Source: Flavobacteriaceae bacterium (GTDB taxonomy: Bacteria; Bacteroidota; Bacteroidia; Flavobacteriales; Flavobacteriaceae). Taken from it: DNA of 64,000 nucleotides. The first letter of the stretch is position 1. The number at the start of each line of letters is the position of its first letter. The DNA is taken from positions 1 through 64,000 of the forward strand of contig JABGUL010000006.1 of the NCBI GenBank assembly GCA_018646605.1. The letters are read 5' to 3'. The position numbers were made by a program, and so were the translations under genes. Below are positions 9,014-54,060 of the stretch, piece by piece. Below the pieces are notes generated by a model. That model was not told the origin of the DNA. It did no database searches and was given only the letters and a program-made list of their open reading frames with translations.

Positions 9014-9057
9014 TGTAACAATTGTTACAGCTATTGATTCAAACTGTAGTATTTTTG
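9014..9057 (+). promoter_or_regulatory. Crp/Fnr-type operator and promoter of the sulfur operon
   Basis: TGTAACAATTGTTACA at 9014-9029 is a perfect 16-bp palindrome of the TGTAAC-N4-GTTACA form. TATTTTTG at 9050-9057 is an exact TAnnTTTG -7 element. No good -33 TTTG is present at the normal spacing. The operator centre is 28.5 bases before the -7 element, placing it near -40, the class II activator position for Crp-family proteins. The same palindrome occurs at 54041-54060. Confidence 0.65.
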
Positions 9058-9073
9058 TTTAAAATAAAAAGAT

Positions 9074-10795
9074 CTGAAAAAGTTTTTTCCCATACTAGAT
9101 TGGATAACATCCTATAAGAAAGCCTACCTAAAAGATGATCTTATTGCAGGTATTACGGTGGCAATTTTATTAATTCCTCAGGGAATGGCCTATGCTCTTA
9201 TTGCAGGATTACCTCCCATTTACGGATTATATGCCGCCTTAACACCACAGATCGTTTATGCCTTTTTAGGGACTTCAAGACAATTGGCCGTGGGCCCAGT
9301 TGCAATGGACTCGCTGCTTGTTGCTTCAGGTTTAGGAGCTCTCTCACTTGTCTCACCAGATCAATACATCCAAATGGCAATTCTCTTGGCGTTATTGATG
9401 GGGTTAATTCAACTCCTTTTAGGTCTTTTTCGGATGGGCTTTATTGTTGCATTTTTATCAAAACCTGTTATTAGTGGATTTACATCAGCTGCAGCAATAA
9501 TAATTGGTTTGAGTCAACTGAAACATCTACTTGGAATAACTATACCACAAAGCAACAAACTTTACATTGTGGTTGAATCAATCTTTAAAAATAATTCTCA
9601 AATTCATTTTCCTACTCTTGCCATAGGATTCTCCGGAATTATTTTGTTGTTAATAATTAAAAAATGGGGGCGTAGGATACCTGCTTCATTAGTCATTGTT
9701 GTACTAGGAATAGGATGGGTTTATTTCACAAAGCAAAGCGAAAAAGGAGTTGCAGTTGTTGGTTTAATTCCTGAAGGACTTCCGTTTTTTAGTGTTCCTG
9801 ATTTTGAATGGGAAAAGATTCAAGTTTTATTTTCAACTGCCCTTACTTTGGCTTTAGTGGCATTCATGGAAGCTATTTCTGTTGCAAAGGCAATTGAAGA
9901 AAAGCATAAGAATTACGAAGTAAATCCAAATCAAGAACTCATCGCCTTAGGAGCGTCAAACATAATTGGTTCCTTGTTTCAATCTTATCCCACTACAGGA
10001 GGTTTTTCTAGGACGGCAGTCAATGATCAGGCGGGTGCAAAATCAGGAATTGCACCTTTGATTACAGCCAGTATTATTGCTGTAGTTTTGAGTTTTTTTA
10101 CCCACTGGTTTTTCTATTTACCAAAAGCAATTCTAGCTTCAATAATTATAGTTGCGGTAGCAAATCTGATCAATATCAACTATGCCATTCGCCTTTATAA
10201 GACTGCTAAAGATGAATTTTTAGTTTTATTATTTACCTTTTTACTAACTCTTTTTATTGGTATTACTGAAGGTATTTTATTGGGTATTTTACTTTCATTG
10301 CTATTACTTGTTTATCGAAATTCAAAGCCACATTTTGCTTTTTTAGGTAGAATAGGTACGACTAATTATTTCAAAAATATCCATCGTTTTCCTGATGAAG
10401 TTACTTCCAGAGAAGATTTGGTTATTTTAAGATTTGACGCACAGCTTTTCTTTGGTAATTTCCAATATTTCAAGCAACTAGTGAACGAGGCGATCAGTAA
10501 AAATCCAGATGTAATTAAAGGATTTATTATTAATGGTCGTTCTATCAATTACATCGACAGCTCTGCAGCCGAACAACTTACAGACCTAATTTCATCTTTA
10601 CAGAAAAAAGGAATCCGCGTCATGTTTGTAGGTGCAATAGGACCTGCCAGAGATGTTATATTAAAAAGTAACATTATTAAAGTATTGAAAAAACAAAATC
10701 TATTTATTACTTCCGGGGATGCTACAGATAGTTTTGATGGAATATGTAAAAAAACACCTCTACAAAAAAAATTAAGCCGCCAAAGCAATTCTTAA
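9074..10795 (+). CDS. SulP-family anion permease with C-terminal STAS domain
   Basis: The frame opens after a stop at 9065 and contains no ATG before the conserved N-terminus, read as (L)KKFFPILDWITSYKK followed by DDLIAGITVAILLIPQGMAY. I therefore place the start at CTG 9074 (573 residues); the alternative GTG at 9158 would cut off conserved SulP residues. The membrane part (about 25-410) has the DDLIAGITVA, PPIYGLYAA and YPTTGGFSRTAVN motifs. A STAS domain fills about 440-555, with IDSSAAEQL near the usual phosphorylation or regulatory serine. The family moves sulfate, bicarbonate or other anions. Position before a persulfide dioxygenase suggests sulfate or sulfite export or uptake. Confidence 0.9.
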   Translation: MKKFFPILDWITSYKKAYLKDDLIAGITVAILLIPQGMAYALIAGLPPIYGLYAALTPQIVYAFLGTSRQLAVGPVAMDSLLVASGLGALSLVSPDQYIQMAILLALLMGLIQLLLGLFRMGFIVAFLSKPVISGFTSAAAIIIGLSQLKHLLGITIPQSNKLYIVVESIFKNNSQIHFPTLAIGFSGIILLLIIKKWGRRIPASLVIVVLGIGWVYFTKQSEKGVAVVGLIPEGLPFFSVPDFEWEKIQVLFSTALTLALVAFMEAISVAKAIEEKHKNYEVNPNQELIALGASNIIGSLFQSYPTTGGFSRTAVNDQAGAKSGIAPLITASIIAVVLSFFTHWFFYLPKAILASIIIVAVANLININYAIRLYKTAKDEFLVLLFTFLLTLFIGITEGILLGILLSLLLLVYRNSKPHFAFLGRIGTTNYFKNIHRFPDEVTSREDLVILRFDAQLFFGNFQYFKQLVNEAISKNPDVIKGFIINGRSINYIDSSAAEQLTDLISSLQKKGIRVMFVGAIGPARDVILKSNIIKVLKKQNLFITSGDATDSFDGICKKTPLQKKLSRQSNS

Positions 10796-10858
10796 ATCTT
10801 GTGTAGCATAGATAACAATTAAATGAATTTTGAATCCTAATTTTACAAAAAAAAATAA

Positions 10859-12262
10859 ATGATCATTGAACAAATTTATACTGGATGCCTTTCTCAAGGC
10901 GCATATTATATTGAAAGTAATGGTGAAGCCGCTATCATAGACCCCTTACGTGAGGTGTCTCCTTATATTGAAAAAGCTAAAAATAATAAGGCCACTATTA
11001 AATATATATTTGAAACTCATTTTCATGCTGATTTTGTGAGTGGGCACGTAACCCTTGCCAAAGAAACTGGGGCAACTATTGTTTATGGTCCTATGGCAAA
11101 GACCGGTTTTGAATCCATGATTGCTTCAGATCAGCAAGAATTTAAAATTGGTGCTCTTACCCTTACTGTTCTTCATACTCCTGGACATACCATGGAGAGT
11201 ACTACTTACTTATTGAGTGATGTTTCCAAAAAAGACATTGCTATTTTTAGTGGAGACACCCTATTCCTAGGAGATGTTGGTCGTCCTGATCTGGCTCAAA
11301 AGTCAGCAGACATGACCCAAGAAGATTTGGCTGGAATTTTATTTGACAGCTTACGTAAAAAAATCATGCCCTTAGCTGATGATCTTCTCGTATATCCAGC
11401 ACATGGAGCTGGTTCAGCTTGTGGAAAAAACCTAAGTAAAGAAACCGTTGGTACACTTGGAGACCAAAAGAAAACAAATTATGCATTGCGCGCAGATATG
11501 ACTAAGGAGGAATTTATCAAAGAAGTTACAGATGGGCTTCTCCCTCCGCCACAATATTTTCCTTTAAATGTAAAAATGAATAAAGAAGGTTATGAAGATA
11601 TCGATACCGTTATAAAAACTGGAACAAGACCTTTGTCACCTCAAGCTTTTGAAGTTGCTGTAAATGAAACAGGAGCAATTGTATTGGATGTAAGACATCA
11701 AAATGATTTTGCAAAAGGACATATACCACAGTCTATTTTTATCGGAATTGATGGTGGCTTTGCTCCTTGGGTAGGTGCAATGATAGGAGATGTAAAACAG
11801 CCTATTTTGTTAGTAACGCCAGAAGGAAGAGAAGAAGAAACAGTGACCCGTTTGGCTCGTGTAGGTTTTGATAATACACTAGGTTATCTTAACGGCGGTA
11901 TTTCTTCCTGGAAAAAGAATGGTAAAACAATTGATACCGTTGAGGGGATAGATGTTGAATCCTTCAAACCTTTAGCTGAAAATTCAACTATTTTTGATGT
12001 ACGCAAACCAGGGGAATATTTATCTGAACACCTTGTAAACGCAAACAGCACGCCGCTAGACTTTTTAAACAACCACATGAGTGAATTTCCTTCAAAGGGG
12101 AATTTTTATATTCATTGCGCTGGAGGGTATCGAAGTATGATAGCAGCATCTATATTAAAAAGTAGGGGTATTCATAATCTAATTGACGTTCGGGGTGGCT
12201 TTTCTGCAATAAAAGAAGGAGGTATGAAAGTATCCGACTACGTTTGCCCTTCAACACTATAA
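10859..12262 (+). CDS. Persulfide dioxygenase-like MBL-fold protein with two rhodanese domains
   Basis: The protein has 467 residues. The N-terminal metallo-beta-lactamase domain has T53-H54-F-H56-A-D58, TPGH110, GD133 and PAH182. This is the mononuclear iron pattern of ETHE1/persulfide dioxygenases. Two rhodanese domains follow. The first (about 255-355) has no active-site cysteine: its loop reads LLVTPEGREEE around 317-327. The second (about 365-467) carries Cys 420 in YIHCAGGYRSM. This order resembles CstB-type enzymes, which oxidise persulfide and transfer sulfane sulfur to give thiosulfate. The first rhodanese probably has a structural role. It is the second gene of the operon, 63 bases after the permease. 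Cytoplasmic, with no signal peptide. Confidence 0.92.
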   Translation: MIIEQIYTGCLSQGAYYIESNGEAAIIDPLREVSPYIEKAKNNKATIKYIFETHFHADFVSGHVTLAKETGATIVYGPMAKTGFESMIASDQQEFKIGALTLTVLHTPGHTMESTTYLLSDVSKKDIAIFSGDTLFLGDVGRPDLAQKSADMTQEDLAGILFDSLRKKIMPLADDLLVYPAHGAGSACGKNLSKETVGTLGDQKKTNYALRADMTKEEFIKEVTDGLLPPPQYFPLNVKMNKEGYEDIDTVIKTGTRPLSPQAFEVAVNETGAIVLDVRHQNDFAKGHIPQSIFIGIDGGFAPWVGAMIGDVKQPILLVTPEGREEETVTRLARVGFDNTLGYLNGGISSWKKNGKTIDTVEGIDVESFKPLAENSTIFDVRKPGEYLSEHLVNANSTPLDFLNNHMSEFPSKGNFYIHCAGGYRSMIAASILKSRGIHNLIDVRGGFSAIKEGGMKVSDYVCPSTL

Positions 12263-12284
12263 TTACTTAAAAGAATAAAAAAAT

Positions 12285-12842
12285 ATGGAATGGATTTTTA
12301 AACCATGGCCTTGGTATATCGGTGGGCCAATGATTGCTTTTGTGTTATTTTTGTTGCTTTTTTTTGGAAAAAGTTTTGGCATGTCATCAAATCTAAGAAC
12401 ACTTTGCACAATTTGCGGAGCTGGAAAAAGTACTCGCTTTTTTGACTTTAACTGGAAGACTCAGCAATGGAATTTATTAGTTGCTTTTGGTGCTATAATA
12501 GGTGGTTGGATCGGAATGCATTGGCTTTCTGATGAAATCATAGTTCAGCTCAATCCAGATACAATTGATCAGTTACACCAGCTCAATATTAAAAGTGCTG
12601 GAGCAGCTTATATGCCAGAAGAACTATTTAGTTTACATGCACTTACAAACCCTAAAGTACTTCTCTCCCTATCATTAGGTGGGTTACTTGTAGGTTTTGG
12701 AGCGCGTTATGCCGGCGGGTGCACCTCAGGGCATGCCATATCGGGACTGAGTAATCTTCAATTAGTTTCCCTCTATGCAGTCATTGGATTCTTTATTGGC
12801 GGCTTACTAATGAATCATTTTTTACTTCCTTATTTCTTATAA
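12285..12842 (+). CDS. YeeE/YedE-family sulfur transporter, first half
   Basis: This is a 185-residue membrane protein with four or five hydrophobic segments. The conserved sulfur-transport motif is GARYAGGCTSGHAISG (about 144-159), in which the cysteine is expected to handle thiosulfate or another sulfane compound in YeeE-type carriers. A second cysteine pair occurs in RTLCTICGAGK. It pairs with the next gene, only two bases away, as the usual split two-protein (PmpAB-like) carrier. It follows the persulfide dioxygenase gene by 22 bases. The product may import or export thiosulfate made by that enzyme; the direction cannot be read from sequence. Confidence 0.9.
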   Translation: MEWIFKPWPWYIGGPMIAFVLFLLLFFGKSFGMSSNLRTLCTICGAGKSTRFFDFNWKTQQWNLLVAFGAIIGGWIGMHWLSDEIIVQLNPDTIDQLHQLNIKSAGAAYMPEELFSLHALTNPKVLLSLSLGGLLVGFGARYAGGCTSGHAISGLSNLQLVSLYAVIGFFIGGLLMNHFLLPYFL

Positions 12843-12844
12843 TC

Positions 12845-13258
12845 ATGAGACAAATTTATTTTCTTTTTATTGGTATTCTTTTTGGAATCATTATGTTTAA
12901 ATCTGAGGCAGCCTCGTGGTTTCGGATTTATGAAATGTTTCAATTCCAATCTTTTCATATGTATGGAATTATTGGTTCAGCCTTATTCTTTGGTGTTATT
13001 ATGATTCAATTCATTAAAAAATTCAAGCTGAAATCAGTCTTTGGGGAGCAAATTAATATACCAGATAAAGACAAAAGCTTTTATCGTTATATGCTTGGAG
13101 GAATTCTATTTGGATTAGGATGGGGATTAGCTGGAGCTTGTCCAGGACCTATGTTTACTCTCATAGGTGCTGGTTTTTTACCTATTTTAGTGGTTATATT
13201 TTTTGCGCTAGTTGGTACTTGGATCTATGGACTAATGATGGATAAACTCCCTCATTAA
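12845..13258 (+). CDS. YeeE/YedE-family sulfur transporter, second half
   Basis: This is a 137-residue membrane protein with four hydrophobic segments and the motif GWGLAGACPGPMFTLIGAG near 98-116. That is the second-half counterpart of the CTSGH motif in the gene before it. It starts two bases after that gene's stop, so the two are translated together. The split arrangement is typical for Bacteroidetes. It is the last gene of the sulfur operon. The 48 bases that follow have a T-rich run but no GC-rich hairpin. Confidence 0.9.
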   Translation: MRQIYFLFIGILFGIIMFKSEAASWFRIYEMFQFQSFHMYGIIGSALFFGVIMIQFIKKFKLKSVFGEQINIPDKDKSFYRYMLGGILFGLGWGLAGACPGPMFTLIGAGFLPILVVIFFALVGTWIYGLMMDKLPH

Positions 13259-13306
13259 TATTCTATTACTCTTTTTTTTTCCTTTTACTGAGCTTATGAA
13301 TAGACA

Positions 13307-13346
13307 TGACAAAATGTCAATATCCTTTTGATTTTTTGTAATTTTG
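13307..13346 (+). promoter_or_regulatory. Predicted miaB operon promoter with TGACA/TGTCA palindrome
   Basis: TGACA (13307-13311) and TGTCA (13315-13319) are perfect inverted arms around AAA. TAATTTTG at 13339-13346 is an exact TAnnTTTG -7 element, with the miaB ATG 28 bases further on. The palindrome overlaps the region where a -33 box would lie, so a regulator bound there could repress or replace it. Related TGACA/TGTCA copies precede groES. Confidence 0.5.
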
Positions 13347-13374
13347 AACACAGATTCAAAGAACAAAAATTATA

Positions 13375-14847
13375 ATGCCTGTAAAAGAATTAGATTCATT
13401 AAGCAAAAATCCTCTTCAACATGAGGGAACTCCGGTTATTGATAGATTAGTTAATGGGAAAGTCTCCAATAAAAAAGCCTATATAGAAAGCTATGGCTGT
13501 CAGATGAATTTTGCAGACAGTGAAGTTGTTGCTTCCATTTTAAATGACGAAGGCTATAGTATAACGGAAGTTTTAGATCAAGCTTCCTTAGTTTTAGTCA
13601 ACACATGTTCGATAAGAGAGAAAGCAGAATTAACAGTTCGAAAGCGACTAGAATATTTTAATTCTCTAAAGAAAAAAAAATCTGAAATGACTGTAGGCGT
13701 TTTGGGCTGTATGGCTGAACGTCTAAAGCATAAATTTTTAGAAGAAGAAAAAATTGTTGACTTGGTGGTGGGTCCAGATGCTTATAAAGACATTCCCAAC
13801 TTACTCAAAGAAGTTGCCAACCAAAGAGAAGCCGTAAATGTGATCTTATCAAAAGAAGAAACCTACGGAGACATTGCACCTGTTCGTTTAAATTCAAACG
13901 GTGTTTCAGCTTTGGTATCTATTACTCGGGGTTGTGACAACATGTGTACTTTTTGTGTTGTCCCTTTTACCAGAGGAAGAGAACGAAGTAGAGATCCTAA
14001 AAGTATCCTTGAGGAAGTAGAAGACCTTGCCAACAAAGGATATAAGGAAATTACGCTCCTTGGACAAAATGTAGATAGCTATTTGTGGTACGGTGGAGGA
14101 CTTAAAAAAGACCTAGAAAAGGCAAGCCCCCTTCAGCAAAAAACAGCCATTGGATTTGAAAAACTATTGGGTTTAGTTGCCGAAGCACATCCTAAAATTA
14201 GAATTCGCTTTTCTACATCCAATCCCCAAGACATGTCTTTAGAGGTTCTCCAAGTGATGAACAAATACAACAATATCTGTAAACACATTCACCTACCTGT
14301 CCAATCAGGAAGTAATCGAATCTTAAAGAAAATGAATCGCCAACATACACGCGAGGAGTACTTTGAATTGATTGATTCCATTCGAAAAATTATCCCAGAC
14401 TGTTCCATTTCACAAGATATGATTGCTGGGTTCCCGACAGAAACCGAAGAGGATCATCAGGAAACTTTAGCTCTCATGGACTATGTGAAATATCATTTTG
14501 GATATATGTATGCGTATTCCGAACGTCCAGGGACACTGGCTGCAAAAAAAATCGTAGATGACGTTCCCGAAGAGGTTAAGCAAAAACGACTTAGTGAGAT
14601 TATAGCAAAGCAAAGAGAACACAGTCAATTTAGAACAGCTGAATATCTTGGTAAAACACTCTGTGTATTGGTTGAGAAAACTTCTAAAAAATTTGATACC
14701 CAATGGAGCGGTAGAACATCTCAAAATACAGTTGTGGTATTTCCAAAAGAGAAATATCAAATTGGTGATTTTGTAGATGTAAAAATCGAAAACTGTACGT
14801 CAGCAACCCTAATAGGATCAGGTCTAGATTATTCAAAAAGCATTTAA
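13375..14847 (+). CDS. miaB: tRNA-2-methylthio-N6-dimethylallyladenosine synthase
   Basis: The protein has 490 residues. The N-terminal UPF0004 domain holds one iron-sulfur cluster through C42 (SYGCQMN), C78 (VNTCSIREKAE) and C112 (GVLGCMAERLK). The radical-SAM motif CDNMCTFC gives C187, C191 and C194, with the nearby VVPFTRGRERSR signature. A TRAM domain closes the protein. MiaB adds the methylthio group to i6A37 in tRNAs reading UNN codons. An extra 30 or so residues before the UPF0004 domain are common in Bacteroidetes homologues. The sigma-54 activator gene follows after two bases, so the genes are co-transcribed. Confidence 0.97.
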   Translation: MPVKELDSLSKNPLQHEGTPVIDRLVNGKVSNKKAYIESYGCQMNFADSEVVASILNDEGYSITEVLDQASLVLVNTCSIREKAELTVRKRLEYFNSLKKKKSEMTVGVLGCMAERLKHKFLEEEKIVDLVVGPDAYKDIPNLLKEVANQREAVNVILSKEETYGDIAPVRLNSNGVSALVSITRGCDNMCTFCVVPFTRGRERSRDPKSILEEVEDLANKGYKEITLLGQNVDSYLWYGGGLKKDLEKASPLQQKTAIGFEKLLGLVAEAHPKIRIRFSTSNPQDMSLEVLQVMNKYNNICKHIHLPVQSGSNRILKKMNRQHTREEYFELIDSIRKIIPDCSISQDMIAGFPTETEEDHQETLALMDYVKYHFGYMYAYSERPGTLAAKKIVDDVPEEVKQKRLSEIIAKQREHSQFRTAEYLGKTLCVLVEKTSKKFDTQWSGRTSQNTVVVFPKEKYQIGDFVDVKIENCTSATLIGSGLDYSKSI

Positions 14848-14849
14848 CT

Positions 14850-16124
14850 ATGGATTCATTACAAAGTATAAAACAACGTTTTGGCATTATTGGCAACAAT
14901 CTTGGTCTCAACAGATCACTAGAAAAAGCAATACGGGTTTCAAGTACTGATATTTCCGTTTTGGTTATTGGAGAAAGTGGGGTGGGTAAAGAAAACATCC
15001 CCAAGATTATTCACCAATACTCCCACAGAAAACATTCAAAATATATTGCAGTAAATTGCGGTGCAATCCCAGAGGGAACAATTGACAGCGAGCTTTTTGG
15101 ACATGAAAAAGGTGCCTTTACAGGAGCTACTCAAACTCGATCAGGGTACTTTGAAGTAGCCGATGGAGGAACCATTTTCTTAGATGAAGTTGGTGAATTG
15201 CCACTTCCTACACAAGTACGCCTTTTGCGTGTTTTAGAAACTGGTGAATTTATCAAAGTTGGATCCTCAAAAGTACAGCAAACTAATGCTCGAATTGTTG
15301 CCGCCACAAATGTAAACATGAATGAAGCCATTCAAAAGGGAAAATTTAGAGAAGATCTATATTATCGGTTGAGTACCGTAGAAATCACACTTCCTCCCTT
15401 AAGAGAAAGAAAAGAAGACATCGTTCTATTATTCCGAAAATTTGCTTCAGATTTTGCTTTAAAATATCAAATGCCACCCCTTCAATTAGATGAACATGCT
15501 CAGGCATTACTCAAGGAATATCGTTGGAATGGAAATATAAGACAGCTACGAAATGTTGCAGAGCAATTATCAGTACTTGAAAAAGAAAGGAATATTAATG
15601 CGGCTATGTTGGGAGCTTATTTACCCGATCGAAGTAGTCAATTACCAGCTGTAGTAGGTCAAAAGGAAAGAGAAAGTGATTTTTCTTCTGAGCGTGAAAT
15701 CCTTTACAAGGTCTTATTTGACATGAAAAGTGACTTAAATGATCTAAAAAAACTTACCCTAGATTTAATCAATAATGGTGTTTCCAAAGGAATACAAGAA
15801 AAAAACCAAGGGTTAATCGAAAAAATTTATGGAAAAGATTCCACTGATGAAGAGGAAGAAACTTCATCAGTTAAAGCACTGCCTTTCCAATCAGAATCTC
15901 CAGAAATCTCTAAGGTTGAATCTGTAGATAAGTATTCTTATGCGGAGACCATAGAAGAAGAAGAACCACTTTCTTTACAAGAAAAAGAAATAGAAATGAT
16001 CAAACAAGCTTTGATTAGAAGCAATGGAAAACGTAAATTAGCATCTAAAGAATTGGGGATTTCTGAACGCACCCTTTATAGAAAAATAAAACAATATGAT
16101 CTCAATGAAATTGAAACAGAATAA
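14850..16124 (+). CDS. Sigma-54-dependent activator (AAA+ and Fis HTH, no receiver domain)
   Basis: The protein has 424 residues and starts almost directly with the AAA+ domain. Walker A is GESGVGKE (41-48), the sigma-54 contact loop is GAFTGA (88-93) and Walker B is TIFLDEVGEL (108-117). A variable acidic linker follows, then a C-terminal Fis-type helix-turn-helix (about 380-424, RKLASKELGISERTLYRKIKQ). There is no receiver, GAF or PAS domain, so activity may be set by amount or a partner protein. The gene lies between miaB and lptE and overlaps lptE by 20 bases. A sigma-54-like promoter with repeated TGACA sites precedes groES about 1.7 kb downstream, a plausible target. Confidence 0.92.
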   Translation: MDSLQSIKQRFGIIGNNLGLNRSLEKAIRVSSTDISVLVIGESGVGKENIPKIIHQYSHRKHSKYIAVNCGAIPEGTIDSELFGHEKGAFTGATQTRSGYFEVADGGTIFLDEVGELPLPTQVRLLRVLETGEFIKVGSSKVQQTNARIVAATNVNMNEAIQKGKFREDLYYRLSTVEITLPPLRERKEDIVLLFRKFASDFALKYQMPPLQLDEHAQALLKEYRWNGNIRQLRNVAEQLSVLEKERNINAAMLGAYLPDRSSQLPAVVGQKERESDFSSEREILYKVLFDMKSDLNDLKKLTLDLINNGVSKGIQEKNQGLIEKIYGKDSTDEEEETSSVKALPFQSESPEISKVESVDKYSYAETIEEEEPLSLQEKEIEMIKQALIRSNGKRKLASKELGISERTLYRKIKQYDLNEIETE

Positions 16125-16635
16125 GACTTATATCCTCCTGGCTATACTTGTTTTTTTGATTTTTCAATCTTGTGGAATCTATTCATTCACAGGAGCTTCA
16201 ATTCCTGCTGGAGTAACAACTTTTCAGGTTAATTTTTTTGAAAATCAAGCAGGAAACAGACCTGGATCAACAGTAGAACCAGGACTAGATAATGAATTTA
16301 CGAATGCGCTACAGGATATTATCATGAATCAAACAAATTTAGATCTTGTAACTTCAGACGGTCAATTGATATATGAAGGAGAAATCACAGAATATAGTGT
16401 AACTCCTATGTCGGCTACAGCAAAAATTACTGCTGCACAAAACCGCCTGAAAATGACTGTTGCTTTTCGATATATAAATACCAAAAGAGAGGAAGATGAT
16501 TATGATAAAAGTTATTCATTCTTTTATGACTTTCCCGCTGAACTCCAAGTATACGATATCAAAGATGCCGCTCATAAAGAAATATTTGATCGAATTACTC
16601 AAGACATTTTTAATGATACCCTAGCCAAATGGTAG
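16105..16635 (+). CDS. lptE: LptE-like LPS-assembly lipoprotein
   Basis: I start at ATG 16105 (176 residues), giving MKLKQNKTYILLAILVFLIFQSCGIYSFTG, a lipoprotein signal with the lipidated cysteine in FQSC; an in-frame ATG nine bases upstream is also possible. The GIYSFTG opening, the NPGST-like RPGSTVEPGLDNEFTNALQD stretch and the late FDRITQDIFNDTLAKW match the Bacteroidetes LptE family. LptE plugs the LptD channel that inserts lipopolysaccharide in the outer membrane. It overlaps the activator gene upstream and the hypothetical downstream by seven bases. LptC from the same pathway is at 48564-49139. Confidence 0.88.
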   Translation: MKLKQNKTYILLAILVFLIFQSCGIYSFTGASIPAGVTTFQVNFFENQAGNRPGSTVEPGLDNEFTNALQDIIMNQTNLDLVTSDGQLIYEGEITEYSVTPMSATAKITAAQNRLKMTVAFRYINTKREEDDYDKSYSFFYDFPAELQVYDIKDAAHKEIFDRITQDIFNDTLAKW

Positions 16636-17384: not shown

Positions 17385-17388
17385 CCTA

Positions 17389-17757: not shown

Positions 17758-17780
17758 TTTTTTTTAATTCCTGTTATAGT

Positions 17781-18152: not shown

Positions 18153-18165
18153 TTTATTAAAATAA

Positions 18166-46957: not shown

Positions 46958-47048
46958 AGTTGCTATTTTTGATAGTCTGCGAAATTAAGGTATTCCAATG
47001 AATTAAGAAAGAACATCGCATTTAAATAGCAATGAAAAAAACGGATGC

Positions 47049-48323
47049 TTAATTCACTTCTGTTTTGGTTAGTATAATCTGTTCAATTTTAGTTGCTGAA
47101 ACTTTCTCGATTTTCATTGAAAACGAAGAAACATCAATCCGTTCGCCTTTTGCAGGAATTTCGCCAGTTGTATATGCAATCATTCCTCCCAAGGTTTCAT
47201 AAAATTCACTTTCTGGTAAATCCAATTGGTATTTTTCATTGAGATAATCAACTTCTAGACGTGCAGAAAATAAATAAGAGTTTTCATCTAATTGTTTTTC
47301 AATATGAGCAATAGTGTCATGCTCATCTTCAATTTCACCAAACAACTCCTCTACAATATCTTCAACAGTAACAATTCCTGAAGTCCCACCGTATTCATCA
47401 ATTACTACAGCTATACTTTTGTGCTGACGAGTCAATAGTTTTAAAACATCGTTTACTAACATTGTTTCAGGCAAATAAGCCACAGGTAACAAAATGTTTT
47501 TTAAAACCTTGGGTTGTTTGATAATTTCAAAAGCATGAATGTATCCTAAAATCTGATCAATAGTTTCTTTGTATACAGGTATTTTGGATAGACCGGTTGT
47601 TATAAACAATGCTTTGACATCTTCGATTGAGGTTTGTTCTTCAACAGCAACAACCTCTGCTCTTGGAACCATGGCCTCGCGTGTTTTAACTTCAGAAAAG
47701 TCTAACGCTTTTTGAAATATTTCAATTTCAGAATCTAAATTTTCTTTATTTTGAAAAGATTCCAACTGCTCTTCTATGTAATTACCTAATTCAACTTTTG
47801 AAAATGAAAGCTGCACTTCGTCATTATCAGTCTTGAAAAAGCGCTTTAATATCACATCGGTAAATTCTATGATAAAATAGGTGATGGGATAAAATAAAAA
47901 GTAAAAAATCGCTACTGGAACAGCAAATATTTTGATGAAGGTGTTGGCATATAACTGAAAAAAGACTTTAGGCAAAAATTCAGCCGTGAGCAATATAATT
48001 CCAGTTGAAATAAGGGTTTGATAAAATATAATAATCAAACTTGCCTCTCCAGTTAAAAGCGTTTCAGTAAAAAAAAGTTGAAGAATTCTATCCCCCATAA
48101 AAATTCCATACAATACCAAGGCTACGTTGTTCCCTAAGAGCATGGTCGCTATAAACTGAGAAGGATTTTGGGTAATGGTTTTTAACACTTTTGAGGTTAA
48201 TCCCTCCTGAGATTTTTCAATCTCAAGGTATATTCTATTAGAAGAAACAAAAGCAATCTCCATCCCAGAAAAAAAAGCAGATAGAACTAAGCAAAGAAGA
48301 ATAATTAAATCCGTAATGACCAT
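47049..48323 (-). CDS. CNNM/CBS-domain membrane protein (hemolysin family, CorC-like)
   Basis: The protein has 424 residues: a CNNM domain with four helices (about 1-150, FFSGMEIAFVSSNRIYLE), two CBS domains (about 200-320, ending AVVIDEYGGTSGIVTVEDIVEELFGEIEDEHD) and a C-terminal CorC_HlyC domain. The family is linked to magnesium or other divalent cation export. It is related to GldE but I do not claim that identity. The stop is 91 bases before the PpiD gene start. The 63-residue membrane protein gene directly abuts it upstream. Confidence 0.93.
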   Translation of the reverse strand: MVITDLIILLCLVLSAFFSGMEIAFVSSNRIYLEIEKSQEGLTSKVLKTITQNPSQFIATMLLGNNVALVLYGIFMGDRILQLFFTETLLTGEASLIIIFYQTLISTGIILLTAEFLPKVFFQLYANTFIKIFAVPVAIFYFLFYPITYFIIEFTDVILKRFFKTDNDEVQLSFSKVELGNYIEEQLESFQNKENLDSEIEIFQKALDFSEVKTREAMVPRAEVVAVEEQTSIEDVKALFITTGLSKIPVYKETIDQILGYIHAFEIIKQPKVLKNILLPVAYLPETMLVNDVLKLLTRQHKSIAVVIDEYGGTSGIVTVEDIVEELFGEIEDEHDTIAHIEKQLDENSYLFSARLEVDYLNEKYQLDLPESEFYETLGGMIAYTTGEIPAKGERIDVSSFSMKIEKVSATKIEQIILTKTEVN

Positions 48324-48515
48324 TTATGAGTTATTACGCTGATTAAATTTTTTCCTGTAATGCCTTCTAAATAAAGCCATAAAAACAGAAAGCACTGCAA
48401 AGCCAATAAAAAGATAAGCTCTAGAGGGATTCGTTTCCCACAAACCTATGGTTTCATAGACAGAAATTACAGCAATAACCCAATATAATACTTCTGAGAT
48501 TCTATAGTTTTTCAT
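48324..48515 (-). CDS. Small two-helix membrane protein
   Basis: The protein has 63 residues, with two hydrophobic segments (about 8-25 and 32-49) and a basic C-terminus (RRHYRKKFNQRNN). It directly abuts the CNNM gene, its stop being adjacent to that start, and lies 48 bases after lptC. It matches no family I recognise; conserved position in flavobacterial envelope operons is my recollection. The tight spacing argues that it is real. Confidence 0.65.
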   Translation of the reverse strand: MKNYRISEVLYWVIAVISVYETIGLWETNPSRAYLFIGFAVLSVFMALFRRHYRKKFNQRNNS

Positions 48516-48563
48516 CTGTGTTTATTATTTCTTTATAAAGATAAAAGGAATTAGTTTACTAAA

Positions 48564-49139
48564 TTATTGTTGCTTAAGTGTATCTAAAGGTTCAGAAACT
48601 GATATTGTTCCAATCAAGTTTCCTGTTTGAAATTTACTAAAATCCCTATTGGTATCCAATCTTAGTGCATCAAAATTATAATCTTGATCATTAAAAGTAA
48701 AGGGTTGTTCTGTAAAAAGCCATTCGCTTTGAGAATCCCAAAATAATTGATTGGTAGTCAGAATTGACCCATCATGTGATTTGAGTTTCACATTACCTTT
48801 AAGATCAATCAATTTAGTTTCATCATAAAGAATCCCATAATCAGCAAGAACTTCGTTTTCATTTCCTAAGTCATCATAAAAGACAACCTTGAGTCCCTCA
48901 GGAAATTCTGCATAACGAAAACTCAAATTTGTGAAGTCAACATGTTTAGGCGCAGTTAAAACGGCTTGAATCCTTAAGGAATCTGTATAAACCATCCGAA
49001 TATTACTGGCTGTAGCCAATGGATCCTGACGATCCATATTCATTTCTTTTAAGGCCTCAGAATTGTCCTCACAAGAAAAAAGAAGGGCTATGGTAAAAAC
49101 CATAACCCTTAATATTCTACTTGATAAATTAAATTTCAT
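48564..49139 (-). CDS. lptC: LptC-like LPS export lipoprotein
   Basis: The protein has 191 residues with a lipoprotein signal ending LLFSC (Cys 23). The LptC/OstA-like beta region includes ASNIRMVYTDSLRIQAVLTAPK, FPEGLKVVFYDDLGNE, ADYGILYDETKLIDLKGNVKLKSHDGSILTTNQLFWDSQSEWLFT. It carries lipopolysaccharide from LptBFG towards LptD/E. In Bacteroidetes LptC is commonly a lipoprotein, as here. It abuts the TPR gene upstream. LptE is at 16105-16635. Confidence 0.88.
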   Translation of the reverse strand: MKFNLSSRILRVMVFTIALLFSCEDNSEALKEMNMDRQDPLATASNIRMVYTDSLRIQAVLTAPKHVDFTNLSFRYAEFPEGLKVVFYDDLGNENEVLADYGILYDETKLIDLKGNVKLKSHDGSILTTNQLFWDSQSEWLFTEQPFTFNDQDYNFDALRLDTNRDFSKFQTGNLIGTISVSEPLDTLKQQ

Positions 49140-50531
49140 TTATAGTGATGGAACCTTTACACTACTGTTGATCCAGCAGCTAAATTTGATAGTAGCTCCT
49201 TCATTTCCTTCTGTAAAAATATCCGTTTTACTAGGGGCTCTTCCTGTGTAGCTGTCTGCAGTTTGATTAGCTACTTTTTTGAGTGAGTTGTCTACATTTC
49301 CAGCTTTACGAGCAACACTAGCAGCCAACCAATAAACTGCTCGCTTATTGAATTGAGTGTCTCCACAGTCATTAGCACTATCAGCATACAAATTAGCAAT
49401 TAATAAGTAAGCTCTTCCTAGTGAAGGTTGAAGGCTTAATGCTTTATTTGCGTAGCTTCGAGCAGAAGATTTACGCCCTGCTGCTTTAAATTTATTAGCA
49501 ATTTTTAATAATATTTTTGCTTTTCGGTAATTATCTTCTTCTAAAGTAATTGATTCTTCGTAGTATTTTAGGGCATCCTCTGAATTCCCTCTTTTATCGT
49601 TAAGCAATCCTAAATAATAAGCTGAATCAGCTGAAGGATCTAATGCATGTAATGCTTCTACAAGAGTAACGAAAAGAGGATCGTCAGAACATTCTTTACT
49701 ATCCATTCTACTTGCTGCTCTCTTAATCCAAACTGCATCTCCCTTGTTAGCTTCAAAATTTCTCTGATACAGAGGAATCAAATTTTCACACGTAGCTTCC
49801 TTAGCTATAATAGCATCTAGGTTGGATAAGAAAGTTGCAATTGCATTTGAGTTTATATTATACACTCTTTGATTTCTTGAATCTCTTCTACTTAGTGGAG
49901 TTCCATCTGATGAAATTGCAATAATTTTATCCAACTTTTTAGCTAGTTCAGTACTTTCAAATTCGAATTTTTCAGAAACCTCCTCATATTTTTCAAATAA
50001 CAGCTCCATAGTTACCTCTTGATCTCCAGCCTTGTAGCGATCGTAAAGTGTTTTGAAGTAGTTGTAAAGTAACTTTGGGTTGGTGAAGCTATCTGGATCC
50101 TTTTGAAAAGCTTCGTCAAAAGTATCATAAACAACTTTCAAATCTGCCATTTCATAGTCTAAAAGTGATTGTGCCTTGCTACTTAATATATCCCCTATTG
50201 CAGACTTATTCTTTTTTTCTGGGAAATTTTGTACCCATTCATCATAAAGAAGAATTAAATCTTTTTTGGATGCCTCAATTTCTTCAGGGGTTCCGTTTTT
50301 GATAAAATCTTTTAAAATTCGTTCTCCGTAAGAATAAACAGCAACATTAATTGTTGGACAATCTCGTCTTACATTCATCCAAGGTTCATATGCTGATTTA
50401 AAGTTTTTTACTTTAGCAAATTCAGCAAAAATGGATAAGTCCTGCATACAAACATTCACGTCTTGAGCCAATAAAGGTGCATTGAACAAAATGGTTAAAA
50501 ACAATACAGACAAAATATTTATCTTTTTCAT
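49140..50531 (-). CDS. Exported tetratricopeptide-repeat protein
   Basis: The protein has 463 residues with a signal peptide ending LLAQD. TPR-type helices occupy the middle and C-terminal half (AYYLGLLNDKRGNSEDALKYYEESITLEEDNYRKAKILLKIANKFKAAGR..). It carries several cysteines (CMQDLSI, RRDCPT, CENL, ECSD, CGDT, FSCW) that may form disulfides. It is likely a periplasmic scaffold. It lies between the outer-membrane protein gene and lptC, with the stop directly against lptC. No enzyme activity is evident. Confidence 0.82.
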   Translation of the reverse strand: MKKINILSVLFLTILFNAPLLAQDVNVCMQDLSIFAEFAKVKNFKSAYEPWMNVRRDCPTINVAVYSYGERILKDFIKNGTPEEIEASKKDLILLYDEWVQNFPEKKNKSAIGDILSSKAQSLLDYEMADLKVVYDTFDEAFQKDPDSFTNPKLLYNYFKTLYDRYKAGDQEVTMELLFEKYEEVSEKFEFESTELAKKLDKIIAISSDGTPLSRRDSRNQRVYNINSNAIATFLSNLDAIIAKEATCENLIPLYQRNFEANKGDAVWIKRAASRMDSKECSDDPLFVTLVEALHALDPSADSAYYLGLLNDKRGNSEDALKYYEESITLEEDNYRKAKILLKIANKFKAAGRKSSARSYANKALSLQPSLGRAYLLIANLYADSANDCGDTQFNKRAVYWLAASVARKAGNVDNSLKKVANQTADSYTGRAPSKTDIFTEGNEGATIKFSCWINSSVKVPSL

Positions 50532-50542
50532 GGAATTAAATT

Positions 50543-51799
50543 TTAATTATATTTTCTTTTTATAAACCAAACATCATTTAACGATAACCCAACGCGAAAG
50601 CCAATTAACGTTTCTTGTAAAAGGCCTGATTCTTTTTGGCCGCGCTGACTAATTTCTAAACCAACATTTACATTTGAAAGACCTCCTAATGGTAGTCCTA
50701 CTCCAAAAGATATGCCAGTTTCTGTTAAAGGTATGTTATTAACAATTAAACTCATTTGTTCTGTGTGGAATCCAAATCGATATACTACCCTTTTCCAGAA
50801 ATTTGTAAACGAAGCATAATTTGGAATAAAAAAACCTCCCACTGACCATTTTTGAGAATCACGATATCGAATGTTTTCACGTTTGAAAAAATCATTGGTA
50901 AAGTTAGCAGATTTAGTTAAATTTCTTTGCACTCCTAAGAACCATTTTTTATCCTTTCCAAAACCTAAACCTGTACGGTACGTTTCAGATATGTCAAGTA
51001 AAGTCTTGTCCAATCCAGATGAACTGAGGTCAACTTCAACAAAGTCAGATATGCTCTCAGTTGAAATAGATTGGGTGTAAAATATTCTATTATTTCGGGA
51101 ATTAAGTGGAGCTTCGGGTTGAAAAGAAAACATACCTTGTAGTTTGTATCGCTTTTTGATTGGAATAATTGCTTGTGCCGAAAACAAATAACTCAATCCA
51201 GATAGACTGGACTGGTTGGTTAAAAAAGTACCATTATCTATATTTTCTAAAAACTGTCCTGATCTGTAAAATAAAGTTCCAAAATTATAATTTATTGATG
51301 CTCCAATCGCTAAAAATTTAGTTAGGGGAAGGCCTACTGAAATATAGGTTTGATTAATCCCTCCAGTCCCTTCATATCGATTTAAAATTTCAGAATTCTC
51401 TGACCCAGAAATACCCTCCAGACGATAACCAACTGAAGAGTAGGGCAAAATTCCAAAACTAAATCCGAAAATACCCGCTGGAATACTAACAGCCAAATAA
51501 TCTAAAGAGGCGGTGTCGGCATTGTAAGAATCAGATGTGGAAGAAAGACTATTATTTCTGTAATTCACTCCCACAGAATATGTTGTAAGCTTCAAAAAAC
51601 CGTAACTGGCAGGATTATTTAAGTTGGCATGAATAGAATCGGTAAATACGTCTAAACCTCCCATGTGCCTGTTGGCTTCTGTTCCATTAAAATTTCGCTC
51701 GCCTAATCCACCTCCCGAATAAGGTGAGGATGAGCCACTCTGTGCAAAAATTGCAGTAGCTACAAAAATTAGGAAAAGGGACAAATTTAATTTTATCAT
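50543..51799 (-). CDS. Outer-membrane beta-barrel protein
   Basis: The protein has 418 residues with a signal peptide (MIKLNLSLFLIFVATAIFAQ). Alternating beta strands and the N-terminal text SSSPYSGGGLGERNFNGTEANRHMGGL and ANLNNPASYGFL place it with FadL/OmpP1-like Bacteroidetes barrels. The exact substrate is unknown. The start overlaps the coaX stop by four bases (ATGA), so translation is coupled. Confidence 0.8.
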   Translation of the reverse strand: MIKLNLSLFLIFVATAIFAQSGSSSPYSGGGLGERNFNGTEANRHMGGLDVFTDSIHANLNNPASYGFLKLTTYSVGVNYRNNSLSSTSDSYNADTASLDYLAVSIPAGIFGFSFGILPYSSVGYRLEGISGSENSEILNRYEGTGGINQTYISVGLPLTKFLAIGASINYNFGTLFYRSGQFLENIDNGTFLTNQSSLSGLSYLFSAQAIIPIKKRYKLQGMFSFQPEAPLNSRNNRIFYTQSISTESISDFVEVDLSSSGLDKTLLDISETYRTGLGFGKDKKWFLGVQRNLTKSANFTNDFFKRENIRYRDSQKWSVGGFFIPNYASFTNFWKRVVYRFGFHTEQMSLIVNNIPLTETGISFGVGLPLGGLSNVNVGLEISQRGQKESGLLQETLIGFRVGLSLNDVWFIKRKYN

Positions 51800-52530
51800 G
51801 AAATTTGATTCAATTCTAGTAAATAGTTCAAACCGTTTGCTAAAAAATTTGAATGCGCAAATATGCTATTTTTTAATGGTATAGACAACATTTGAGCATC
51901 CCCTCCTGTTAAAATTACCGTTAAATCTTCATGTTTTAATTGATATGCCTTTGTAATTGCTTGTAATTCATAGCTTATACCATGGTAAACTCCTGAATGT
52001 AATGCATTTAAAGTTGAAGTTGCAATTAATTCAATTCCTTCTTTTTTAGGATTAAGTAAAGGTAATTTACCAGAATAATCGTGCATACTTTTATAACGCA
52101 TCGAAAATCCAGGACTTATAGACCCTCCGTGGTGTATCGCATTTTCATCTATAAAGTCGTACGTTATACAGCTGCCAAGATCGATGACCAAAACATTTTT
52201 TTTAGGGTATAACAAACAGCAAGAAGCAAGCAATGCAATTCGGTCCTGTCCCAACTGTTGTGAAGGATTATATTTTGTAGTAAAGGGTAATTTTAAATCA
52301 ATCGAACAAAGAATCAAAGGTAAAGAATGGAGCACTTTTTGAATTTGATTTAAAATAGCACCATTTACATCAGAAATAATTACGCTTTTGAGCTCTGGAT
52401 AGTTTTTTTTAATTTTTTCTAAAGAAATAGCCCAATTTAAATGATTTTCAGAAGAGGAATTTATAATTGTTTTTTCATCAAACACATAGTATTTAATTAG
52501 AGTATTACCAATATCAATGATTAATTGCAT
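51796..52530 (-). CDS. coaX: Type III pantothenate kinase
   Basis: The protein has 244 residues. It has MQLIIDIGNTLIKYYVF (phosphate loop), the GQDRIALLASC stretch and VLVIDLGSCITYDFI with the GGSISPGFSMRYKSMH motif. It phosphorylates pantothenate in CoA synthesis and needs a monovalent cation. It opens the minus-strand envelope cluster, as often in Bacteroidetes. Confidence 0.95.
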   Translation of the reverse strand: MQLIIDIGNTLIKYYVFDEKTIINSSSENHLNWAISLEKIKKNYPELKSVIISDVNGAILNQIQKVLHSLPLILCSIDLKLPFTTKYNPSQQLGQDRIALLASCCLLYPKKNVLVIDLGSCITYDFIDENAIHHGGSISPGFSMRYKSMHDYSGKLPLLNPKKEGIELIATSTLNALHSGVYHGISYELQAITKAYQLKHEDLTVILTGGDAQMLSIPLKNSIFAHSNFLANGLNYLLELNQIS

Positions 52531-52581
52531 CTATTTTTTTATTGAATGCGTAAATTTACAAAGAAAATATAGGTAAATGTT

Positions 52582-52611
52582 TTTGTGGAACACAAAAGGC
52601 GTTTATATTTG
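52582..52611 (+). promoter_or_regulatory. tRNA-Phe promoter (consensus Bacteroidetes type)
   Basis: TTTG (52582-52585) is followed after 18 bases by TATATTTG (52604-52611), an exact match to TTTG / TAnnTTTG. The mature tRNA begins 18 bases downstream. Confidence 0.8.
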
Positions 52612-52628
52612 CACTTGCTTAAAAGCGG

Positions 52629-52701
52629 GGTACCTTAGCTCAGTTGGTAGAGCAAAGGACTGAAAATCCTTGTGTCCCTGGTTCGATTCCTGGAGGTACC
52701 A
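52629..52701 (+). tRNA. tRNA-Phe (GAA)
   Basis: The 73 bases fold as a normal cloverleaf. The acceptor stem pairs GGTACCT (52629-52635) with AGGTACC (52694-52700), with discriminator A52701 and no encoded CCA. The anticodon stem AAGGA/TCCTT closes the loop CTGAAAA, with anticodon GAA at 52662-52664. The T-loop GGTTCGATTCC is standard. Confidence 0.98.
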
Positions 52702-52713
52702 CTTTTAACTTAC

Positions 52714-52749
52714 AACCCTTGAAAATCAAATGATATTCAAGGGTTTTTT
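52714..52749 (+). terminator. Rho-independent terminator after tRNA-Phe
   Basis: AACCCTTGAA (52714-52723) and TTCAAGGGTT (52736-52745) form a perfect 10-bp stem with a 12-base loop, followed by a T run to 52749. Confidence 0.9.
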
Positions 52750-52845
52750 CATAAAACAAACTTCTATTTACGTTGAAAGATAATAAGCTGATTTGAATGT
52801 AATTTCTTTAAAAAGAACTTATTTTAGTGGTAAATATTTAAAAGC

Positions 52846-53454
52846 ATGGAAATTAAAAAAACAATTCCCTTATTCTTACTGTTTTTTTTATCTCAAGTGA
52901 TCATGGGGCAGACAAACAACTCTTTATTTGATGATATTTCATCTGATCAAAAAAACCAGGAACTACTCCCTTCCTCAATGATATTTACACAACGCTTACT
53001 TTGGGGTGAAAAGGGATTGATGCGAAGTACAAAAGTACTCCCGCTAAATCTAGAAAATCGAGAAAAGGAATTAAAAATTAGAAGAAAAATGCTTTTAGCC
53101 CATCAAGTAATTGGTTATGCAACTCTAGCGGGAATGATTGCGCAAGGTGTATTGGGTACAAAACTTTACAATGGTCAATATCGGTATAAAGACACCCATG
53201 AGCTTATTGGAAATATCACTACCGCCTCATATTTTACAGGTGCAGGGCTATCCCTTTTTGCCCCACCTCCATTAATCAGTAATAAAAACAAGGGCCTTAC
53301 CTCCATTAAAGCCCATAAGTGGTTGGCTACAGTTCACTTTTCTGCCATGATTGCAACTAACTTATTAGCAGAATCTGAAAAAAAATACCACCGAACAGCA
53401 GCTTTCACATTATTTGGGAGTTATGCACTAGCAGTAGTTTCATTTAAATTTTAA
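52846..53454 (+). CDS. Membrane protein with cytochrome b561-like histidine pattern
   Basis: The protein has 202 residues, a signal-like N-terminus ending MGQ and about four hydrophobic segments in the second half (86-104, 122-140, 158-174 and 184-202). Histidines H86, H118, H157, H164 and H182 lie at or near helix ends, a spacing that suggests b-type haem binding as in cytochrome b561 or ferric reductases. I make no firm family call. The YceI gene follows two bases after the stop, and YceI proteins are often linked to b561-like partners. TATTTTAG at 52820-52827 is a possible -7 element. Confidence 0.7.
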   Translation: MEIKKTIPLFLLFFLSQVIMGQTNNSLFDDISSDQKNQELLPSSMIFTQRLLWGEKGLMRSTKVLPLNLENREKELKIRRKMLLAHQVIGYATLAGMIAQGVLGTKLYNGQYRYKDTHELIGNITTASYFTGAGLSLFAPPPLISNKNKGLTSIKAHKWLATVHFSAMIATNLLAESEKKYHRTAAFTLFGSYALAVVSFKF

Positions 53455-53456
53455 GT

Positions 53457-54002
53457 ATGAAATCAAGAATTAACTTTAGCCTTGCCCTACTATTACTCGT
53501 GAATCTAAACTTTGGACAGAATGAAAGTTGGATGCTAAATGCCGATCAAAGTTTTATTTCATACGATGCAAAACACGTGCTACATGCTTGGAAAGGTATA
53601 AACTCTAATGTAAAAGGTGTAGCAAAAATAGAAATGAAAGACGATCAAATTAAAGAAATTGCCATTTTAACTTTAGTAAAAGATTTTGATAGTAATAATA
53701 CAGGTAGGGATGCTCATGCATTAGAAGTATTAGAGTCCCTTTCTTTCCCAGAAGTTCGTTTTTATGCAGACACCTTTGAAATAACTAAGGACTCTGTTCA
53801 AATTTCAGGCTTATTCAATTTCCATGGTGTCGATCAAAAAAAATCCATTACTGCACATCTGGAAAATTTAAAAAATAAGAAAATTCTAACCGGAAAATTC
53901 AATCTAATTCCTTCCGATTTCGACATTGCCTTACCCTCTTTCATGATGGTAAAAATGGAAAACCTATTAACTTTTGATTTTAAACTAGAATTTTCAAAAT
54001 AG
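53457..54002 (+). CDS. YceI-family periplasmic lipid-binding-fold protein
   Basis: The protein has 181 residues with a signal peptide (MKSRINFSLALLLLVNLNFGQ). The YceI barrel shows ADQSFISYDAKHVLHAWKGINSNVKG, VKDFDSNNTGRDAHALEVLESLSFPEVRF and ISGLFNFHGVDQKKSI. The family binds isoprenoid chains such as quinone-like lipids. It pairs with the preceding His-rich membrane gene, two bases apart. No terminator hairpin separates it from the operator at 54041. Confidence 0.93.
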   Translation: MKSRINFSLALLLLVNLNFGQNESWMLNADQSFISYDAKHVLHAWKGINSNVKGVAKIEMKDDQIKEIAILTLVKDFDSNNTGRDAHALEVLESLSFPEVRFYADTFEITKDSVQISGLFNFHGVDQKKSITAHLENLKNKKILTGKFNLIPSDFDIALPSFMMVKMENLLTFDFKLEFSK

Positions 54003-54040
54003 AAAAACACTCCAGATTAAAAACAGTACTCTAAATTGCT

Positions 54041-54060
54041 TGTGTAACTATAGTTACACA
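54041..54060 (+). promoter_or_regulatory. Crp/Fnr-type operator before the rhodanese gene
   Basis: TGTGTAACTATAGTTACACA is a perfect 20-bp palindrome whose core TGTAAC-N4-GTTACA equals the operator at 9014-9029. The centre is 29.5 bases before a weak -7 element TAAATTGT (54080-54087), within one base of the spacing seen at the sulfur operon (28.5). This points to activation by the same Crp/Fnr protein. Confidence 0.6.

What the first reader, a model, noticed from the sequence alone, without database searches (positions are those of the whole stretch)
9014..54060. One palindrome, TGTAAC-N4-GTTACA, controls two distant sulfur loci
Perfect palindromes occur at 9014-9029 (before SulP, persulfide dioxygenase and YeeE/YedE) and at 54041-54060 (before a stand-alone rhodanese, 45 kb away). 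In both, the centre is about 29 bases before a -7 element (28.5 and 29.5), near -40, the class II position of Crp-family activators. I found no other full copy by eye in the window. Both targets act on sulfane sulfur, and a Crp/Fnr gene sits beside the first. This defines a testable regulon for persulfide or thiosulfate metabolism that I have not seen described for Flavobacteria.
Basis: partly seen in the sequence, partly recalled or inferred. Interest (0 to 1): 0.72.

Follow-up and report, generated by a model that had tools for sequence, protein, structure and literature searches.

The report
Sulfur-oxidation regulon switch in Flavobacteria

Summary
In detail: two perfect TGTAAC-N4-GTTACA palindromes (9014-9029; 54043-54058, inside a 22-bp perfect palindrome), each 28.5/29.5 bp before a -7 box. 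The genome (1.98 Mb) holds three copies, all in promoter regions: these two and one before a DoxX pair. All 18 genus genomes carrying the adjacent Crp/Fnr gene have the site directly after it, at 28.5 or 29.5 bp. In 201 family genomes the site tracks the Crp gene (105/169 with, 4/32 without; p=1.5e-7). Sampled sites are 70/75 intergenic against 1/30 for a control palindrome; 47/71 precede sulfur genes (SQR, persulfide dioxygenase, sulfite dehydrogenase-like, TauE, YeeE, SulP) against none near controls. An unbiased search of 80 Crp loci returns GTAAC-N4-GTTAC as top dyad. The centre-to-box distance is 29.5 bp in 138 of 232 cases (background 3.5), i.e. -41.5, the class II position. The regulator lacks key cAMP contacts, carries three conserved cysteines by the cAMP-pocket position, and has Val where CRP has Glu181, consistent with TGTAA rather than TGTGA. 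Caveats: no binding measured; signal inferred; the rhodanese site is lineage-specific; the third copy lacks canonical spacing. I found no published description.

The parts
9014..9029 (.). Site 1: perfect palindrome TGTAAC-AATT-GTTACA, predicted operator of the Crp/Fnr regulator, centre 9021.5
   Evidence: conserved in all 18 Crp-carrying genus genomes
9050..9057 (+). -7 box TATTTTTG, first base 28.5 bp from the site 1 centre
   Evidence: spacing conserved in the genus
8383..9003 (+). Crp/Fnr-family regulator, 206 aa; Cys74, Cys80, Cys81; recognition helix SSRVVISR
   Evidence: Pfam cNMP_binding and HTH_Crp_2 over cut-off; alignments A1, A3; CRP fold
9074..10795 (+). SulP-family permease with STAS domain, first gene after site 1; probable CTG start at 9074 (first standard start GTG 9158)
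10859..12262 (+). Metallo-beta-lactamase/rhodanese protein of persulfide-dioxygenase type, 467 aa
12285..12842 (+). YeeE/YedE (Sulf_transp) protein, first piece
12845..13258 (+). YeeE/YedE-like (DUF6691/Sulf_transp) protein, second piece
54040..54061 (.). Site 2: 22-bp perfect palindrome TTGTGTAACTATAGTTACACAA containing TGTAAC-N4-GTTACA at 54043-54058, centre 54050.5
54080..54087 (+). -7 box TAAATTGT (SM5-like TAnnTTGY), first base 29.5 bp from the site 2 centre
   Evidence: box type from PMC9723704
54116..54457 (+). Stand-alone rhodanese, 113 aa, gene after site 2

Best explanation
The palindrome (core GTAAC-N4-GTTAC, best with flanking T/A) is the operator of the Crp/Fnr-family regulator encoded at 8383-9003. 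A dimer binds it centred at -41.5 (sometimes -40.5) and works as a class II activator, taking the place of the upstream promoter contact next to the Bacteroidetes -7 box TAnnTTTG. Its regulon is sulfur oxidation and detoxification. In this genome that means the SulP/persulfide dioxygenase/YeeE operon, the stand-alone rhodanese, and possibly a DoxX pair. In relatives it also covers sulfide:quinone reductase, SorA-like sulfite dehydrogenase, TauE exporters, DsrE-like proteins, cytochrome bd and sometimes the regulator gene itself. The most likely signal is sulfane sulfur (persulfide or polysulfide) acting on the conserved cysteines Cys74, Cys80 and Cys81, which lie beside the position of the cAMP pocket in CRP. 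Shown by sequence: motif, spacing, target genes, co-occurrence with the regulator gene, loss of key cAMP contacts. Inferred: binding by this protein, activation rather than repression, and the signal.
For: Three copies in 1.98 Mb, all perfect, all in promoter regions. Site directly after crp and before SulP in 18/18 genus genomes with crp (17 with the exact core, one with one change), each 28.5 or 29.5 bp from a -7 box. 220 sites against 79 for the reversed control in 201 family genomes. Site presence tracks the Crp gene, odds ratio 11.5, p=1.5e-7, while the control pattern does not. 70/75 sampled sites intergenic against 1/30 control sites. 47/71 precede sulfur genes against 0/30 control loci, with Pfam/NCBIfam names SQR, SorA, TauE, rhodanese, Sulf_transp. 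Unbiased top palindromic dyad in 80 named Crp loci, 58 loci intergenic. Sharp spacing peak at 29.5, 138 of 232, background 3.5. The composite site plus box occurs exactly in 36/396 Bacteroidota genomes, control 0. Val180 at the CRP Glu181 position, with Arg179 and Arg184 kept. Key cAMP contacts Glu72 and Arg82 are replaced by Thr77 and Ser87 in the HMMER alignment.
Against: No binding or expression data. About a third of sampled sites precede genes I could not link to sulfur. 64 of 169 Crp-carrying family genomes have no perfect site, probably because sites there differ at the outer base; this was not tested genome by genome. The third genomic copy (before the DoxX pair) has no -7 box at 28.5/29.5. 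The rhodanese site is not conserved in the genus. One relative (L061, G249) keeps the site but has lost Cys80 and Cys81, which weakens the cysteine-sensor step.
Confidence: 0.83

Rival explanations
1. Same regulator and regulon, but the signal is not sulfane sulfur: the cysteines hold an Fe-S cluster or sense oxygen, NO or general redox state, and sulfur genes are targets because sulfide occurs at low oxygen.
For: Some targets are oxygen- or NO-linked: cytochrome bd, hybrid cluster protein in one distant relative, c-type cytochromes. FNR shows that a Crp-family protein can hold a cluster (established knowledge).
Against: Most named targets are sulfide, persulfide, sulfite or thiosulfate genes. 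No N-terminal cysteine cluster as in FNR: no cysteine before Cys74.
Confidence: 0.35
2. The palindrome is bound by a different Crp/Fnr paralogue or another regulator, and the adjacent Crp gene is only a neighbour.
For: Several Crp-family genes per genome are common in the family; binding was not measured.
Against: Site and this Crp gene co-occur; the site sits beside this gene throughout the genus and before the regulator gene itself in 11 cases in the named loci; the two other Crp homologues of this genome lack the RVVISR recognition helix.
Confidence: 0.07
3. The site is an operator for repression, not activation, that happens to sit at a fixed place.
For: Binding near -40 can also block RNA polymerase; the third copy is not at class II spacing.
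Against: The spacing is fixed to within one base pair over many unrelated promoters, which class II activation needs and repression does not.
Confidence: 0.08
4. Chance or a structural palindrome (terminator, hairpin) without regulatory role.
For: Palindromes of 12 fixed bases arise by chance in AT-rich genomes; a few perfect copies occur in Crp-less relatives, and the one examined (L072) lies inside a long reading frame.
Against: Enrichment, intergenic placement, spacing peak and gene function all contradict it.
Confidence: 0.02

Closest known systems
E. coli CRP (CAP) at class II promoters
   Same: Fold (Foldseek TM about 0.8), two-fold symmetric site, centre at -41.5, Arg180 and Arg185 equivalents kept
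   Different: cAMP contacts Glu72 and Arg82 absent (Thr77, Ser87); Glu181 is Val; site is TGTAAC not TGTGA; targets are sulfur genes; the promoter has a TAnnTTTG box
FNR (oxygen-sensing Crp-family regulator)
   Same: Crp/Fnr fold, cysteines in the sensor domain, class II activation
   Different: No N-terminal cysteine cluster; Val instead of Glu in the recognition helix; site TGTAAC-N4-GTTACA, not TTGAT-N4-ATCAA (FNR site from general knowledge)
NtcA of cyanobacteria (GTA-N8-TAC sites)
   Same: GTAAC-N4-GTTAC contains GTA-N8-TAC; activation from near -41.5 is known for NtcA (general knowledge)
   Different: Only 22.1 bits against a cut-off of 244.95 in NCBIfam; regulon is nitrogen, not sulfur; different phylum
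Sulfane-sulfur/sulfide-responsive regulators of other folds (CstR, SqrR/BigR, FisR, MarR family, OxyR, YrkD)
   Same: Control PDO, SQR, rhodanese and similar genes in response to sulfane sulfur (e.g. PMC11211675, PMC9918477, PMC6831875; others from general knowledge)
   Different: They belong to CsoR, ArsR, sigma-54-activator, MarR or LysR families; no Crp/Fnr member turned up in the papers searched
3dv8, Eubacterium rectale Crp/Fnr protein of unknown function
   Same: Closest solved structure by sequence and fold; has cysteines in the same loop (DMCLLSASC)
   Different: About 25% identity, different phylum, no target named in the record

Membership tests
Crp/Fnr superfamily | cNMP-binding-type domain plus Crp-type HTH above curated cut-offs, CRP fold | tested here: met
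   PF00027 34.3 bits (cut-off 27.5), PF13545 35.2 (27); AlphaFold pLDDT 89.9 and Foldseek to CAP
CRP (cAMP receptor protein proper) | Equivalog score above cut-off and cAMP contact residues Glu72, Arg82 | tested here: not met
   37.6 bits against cut-off 266; alignment gives Thr77 and Ser87 at these positions
FNR | N-terminal Cys cluster ligating [4Fe-4S]; Glu-x-x-Ser-Arg recognition helix | tested here: not met
   No cysteine before Cys74; helix is RVVISR
NtcA | NCBIfam NtcA equivalog | tested here: not met
   22.1 bits against cut-off 244.95
Class II Crp-type activation | Operator centred near -41.5 relative to the start site | tested here: met
   Centre 29.5 bp before the first T of the -7 box, which spans -12 to -5 in F. 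psychrophilum (PMC9723704), gives -41.5; start sites were not mapped here
Class II Crp-type activation | Transcription rises when the activator binds | not testable with these tools
   Needs reporter or RNA-seq data
Sulfane-sulfur-sensing regulators | Genes for SQR, PDO, rhodanese, TauE/YeeE under control | tested here: met
   Predicted targets (by motif, not by expression)
Sulfane-sulfur-sensing regulators | Cysteine persulfidation or polysulfide changes DNA binding | not testable with these tools
   Conserved Cys74/80/81 only; the set in A3 was collected with patterns holding Cys74 and part of the recognition helix, so those columns are biased; A1 from an unselected relatives search shows the same

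The most novel reading that the evidence does not exclude
A distinct Crp/Fnr subfamily in class Bacteroidia has swapped the cyclic-nucleotide contacts for a cysteine trio (Cys74, Cys80, Cys81) that senses persulfide or polysulfide, and is the master class II activator of sulfur oxidation across Flavobacteriaceae and other families of the class, with the recognition-helix Val (CRP Glu181 position) setting the TGTAAC specificity.
Probability: 0.45. Interest if true: 0.8.

Novelty: new variant of a known kind. Interest (0 to 1): 0.7.

Why it matters
Flavobacteria and relatives are abundant heterotrophs in marine and sediment waters, and many carry sulfide and persulfide oxidation genes for which I know of no regulator. 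If true, one Crp-family protein and one readable DNA site give a regulon that can be predicted in most genomes of the group, a class II activation rule for the unusual Bacteroidetes promoter, and a candidate sulfane-sulfur sensor with a CRP fold. It is directly testable in cultured strains.

Tried and rejected
One-mismatch sites in the genus look like noise: scattered, similar in Crp-less genomes. Perfect copies in Crp-less genomes G234, G215 and G211 share one sequence; the one examined (L072, G234) lies inside a long reading frame. A fourth core copy (GTAAC-N4-GTTAC) in the own genome lies inside the ribosomal S5 gene: chance. A relaxed composite search in the own genome added one candidate before a DUF983-like gene and one obvious chance hit; neither is included. 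DoxX orthologues: degenerate sites in two close relatives (G207, G230), none in the more distant single-DoxX clade whether or not Crp is present, so DoxX is not counted as firm. Rhodanese P0004: no site in any of the other 29 rhodanese loci examined. Literature searches for a described regulon or motif returned nothing relevant; one search failed on syntax and one cited paper was not held.

Full report
What was checked. Site 1 is TGTAACAATTGTTACA at 9014-9029. Site 2 is TGTAACTATAGTTACA at 54043-54058, the middle of a 22-bp perfect palindrome at 54040-54061. No other full copy is in the window. The expected number by chance is 0.003-0.007 per window. The whole genome (G000, 1.98 Mb, 98% complete) has three full copies and no site with exactly one mismatch; a reversed control pattern has 0 perfect and 16 with up to one mismatch. 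The third copy lies before two DoxX-like genes on contig 19.

Genes. Pfam confirms a Crp/Fnr regulator (8383-9003), SulP with STAS, a metallo-beta-lactamase/rhodanese protein of persulfide-dioxygenase type, two YeeE/Sulf_transp pieces and, 45 kb away, a stand-alone rhodanese.

Conservation in the genus. The Crp orthologue is found in 18 of the genus genomes searched and is missing from the others, several of which are incomplete. In all 18 the palindrome lies just downstream of crp, before SulP; 17 have the exact core, one (G217) has one changed base. The distance from centre to -7 box is 28.5 bp in 17 and 29.5 bp in one. The surrounding bases differ, so this is a footprint, not simple close relationship. 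Outside the genus, three relatives of the same order (G245, G257, G249) keep it after crp too, at 29.5 bp.

Family-wide test. In 201 genomes of the family there are 220 perfect sites against 79 for the reversed control. 105 of 169 genomes with the Crp protein have a site, 4 of 32 without; Fisher p=1.5e-7. The control pattern shows no such link (p=0.69). These genomes share ancestry, so the p-value is a guide, not exact. Of 75 sampled sites, 70 are outside genes; of 30 control sites, 1. Downstream proteins fall into clusters that Pfam and NCBIfam name as type III sulfide:quinone reductase (12), SorA-like sulfite dehydrogenase (7), TauE (7), rhodanese with or without lactamase domain (7), Sulf_transp (4) and FadL-type porins (7); smaller clusters look like DsrE, DoxX, CydA and PhsA-like proteins (named from sequence by eye, not by library search). 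47 of 71 sites have a sulfur gene within 1.2 kb downstream; none of 88 reading frames around the 30 control sites is one. The reference set for that count was made from the clusters plus window proteins, so it is descriptive; the family names are independent.

Unbiased motif search. Eighty Crp loci of named organisms were fetched (Euzebyella, Arenibacter, Maribacter, Salegentibacter, Winogradskyella, Flavobacterium, Polaribacter, Flexithrix and others). Scoring every palindromic dyad of 5-mers at spacings 2-10, GTAAC-N4-GTTAC is first by a wide margin: intergenic in 58 of 80 loci, next best 22. So the true core is GTAAC-N4-GTTAC, with T or A preferred on the flank.

Geometry. For 232 site-gene pairs the first T of a TAnnTTTG-like box lies 29.5 bp from the centre in 138 and 28.5 in 14; other positions average 3.5. 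In F. psychrophilum the box spans -12 to -5 (PMC9723704), so the centre is at -41.5, the classic class II place. The composite pattern (site + 22 bases + box) occurs exactly in 36 of 396 Bacteroidota genomes and its reversed control in none; 35 of the 36 are in the window's class. One relative (G516) has seven sites in 26 kb, next to PDO, TauE, cytochrome bd and a pyridine-nucleotide-disulphide oxidoreductase, among others.

The regulator. It has the CRP fold. The residues aligned with the cAMP contacts Glu72 and Arg82 of CRP are Thr77 and Ser87, so it is not a cAMP receptor of the CRP type. Cys74 and Cys81 are invariant and Cys80 nearly so in 45 orthologues; the AlphaFold model puts Cys80 and Cys81 in the short helix 78-82 and Cys74 in the loop before it, the least confident part of the model. 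That set was collected with patterns including Cys74 and part of the recognition helix, but an unselected relatives search shows the same in nearly all site-bearing proteins. At the position of CRP Glu181, one of three base-contacting residues of CRP (PMC12531629), all have Val; the sites have A:T where CRP sites have G:C (TGTAA versus TGTGA). That Glu181 changes alter this base preference is from my general knowledge of CRP genetics, not tested here. The other two Crp homologues of this genome have diverged helices.

Mechanism and its standing. Shown by sequence: a conserved operator at fixed class II spacing, in front of sulfur oxidation genes, in genomes that carry this regulator. Inferred: that this protein binds it, that binding activates, and that the signal is sulfane sulfur. 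The main open alternative concerns the signal (Fe-S or oxygen/NO), since cytochrome bd and, once, hybrid cluster protein also follow the site.

Weak points specific to the window. The rhodanese site is a perfect 22-bp palindrome at canonical spacing, but its box is TAAATTGT, which fits the SM5 promoter class (TAnnTTGY) rather than TAnnTTTG, and no genus relative has the same gene with a site. The DoxX copy has no box at 28.5/29.5; the nearest TAnnTTTG-like stretch is TTTTTTTG at 24.5. These two targets are less certain than the SulP operon.

Known or new. No described Crp/Fnr regulon for sulfur oxidation in Bacteroidetes was found in the open papers searched; subscription papers were not covered. 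Known sulfane-sulfur regulators belong to other protein families. I rate it a new variant of a known kind.

Noticed in passing
window 9074-9160 and L039-L054: The SulP gene seems to start at CTG (CTGAAAAAGTTTTTTCCC): no ATG, GTG or TTG precedes the conserved N-terminus, the CTG recurs at this place in the genus, and the relative L056 has ATGCTAAAAAAA there.
   Followed up: partly
window 54080-54087: The box after site 2, TAAATTGT, matches the SM5 promoter class (TAnnTTGY) of F. psychrophilum, so this promoter may use another sigma factor.
   Followed up: no
L386 5700-15634 and L387 292-11604: A distant relative (G516, same class) has seven operator copies in 26 kb around PDO, TauE, cytochrome bd, a pyridine-nucleotide-disulphide oxidoreductase, a TonB receptor and a 5'-nucleotidase.
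   Followed up: partly
L008, L017, L018, L163, L169, L190: An unnamed membrane protein of about 225-245 aa with no NCBIfam match (tested on L018) recurs beside operator sites, usually opposite the SorA-like sulfite dehydrogenase.
   Followed up: no
L011, L165: A PhsA-like molybdopterin oxidoreductase and an ExtM-like multihaem cytochrome flank one operator divergently.
   Followed up: no
L389 2990-3003: Operator at class II spacing before a hybrid cluster protein (Prismane) gene, hinting at an NO or redox link in that lineage.
   Followed up: no
L393 1079-1092 and 2861-2874: In a different family of the class, SulP and PDO each carry their own operator copy with the same core.
   Followed up: partly
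L388 / L384 around 1500: Own-genome one-mismatch site GTAACCATTATTAC with TACCTTTG at canonical spacing before a small DUF983-like membrane protein; status unclear.
   Followed up: partly
L010, L012, L028, L193: A fatty-acid-hydroxylase-like protein recurs next to TauE, YeeE or SQR behind the operator.
   Followed up: no
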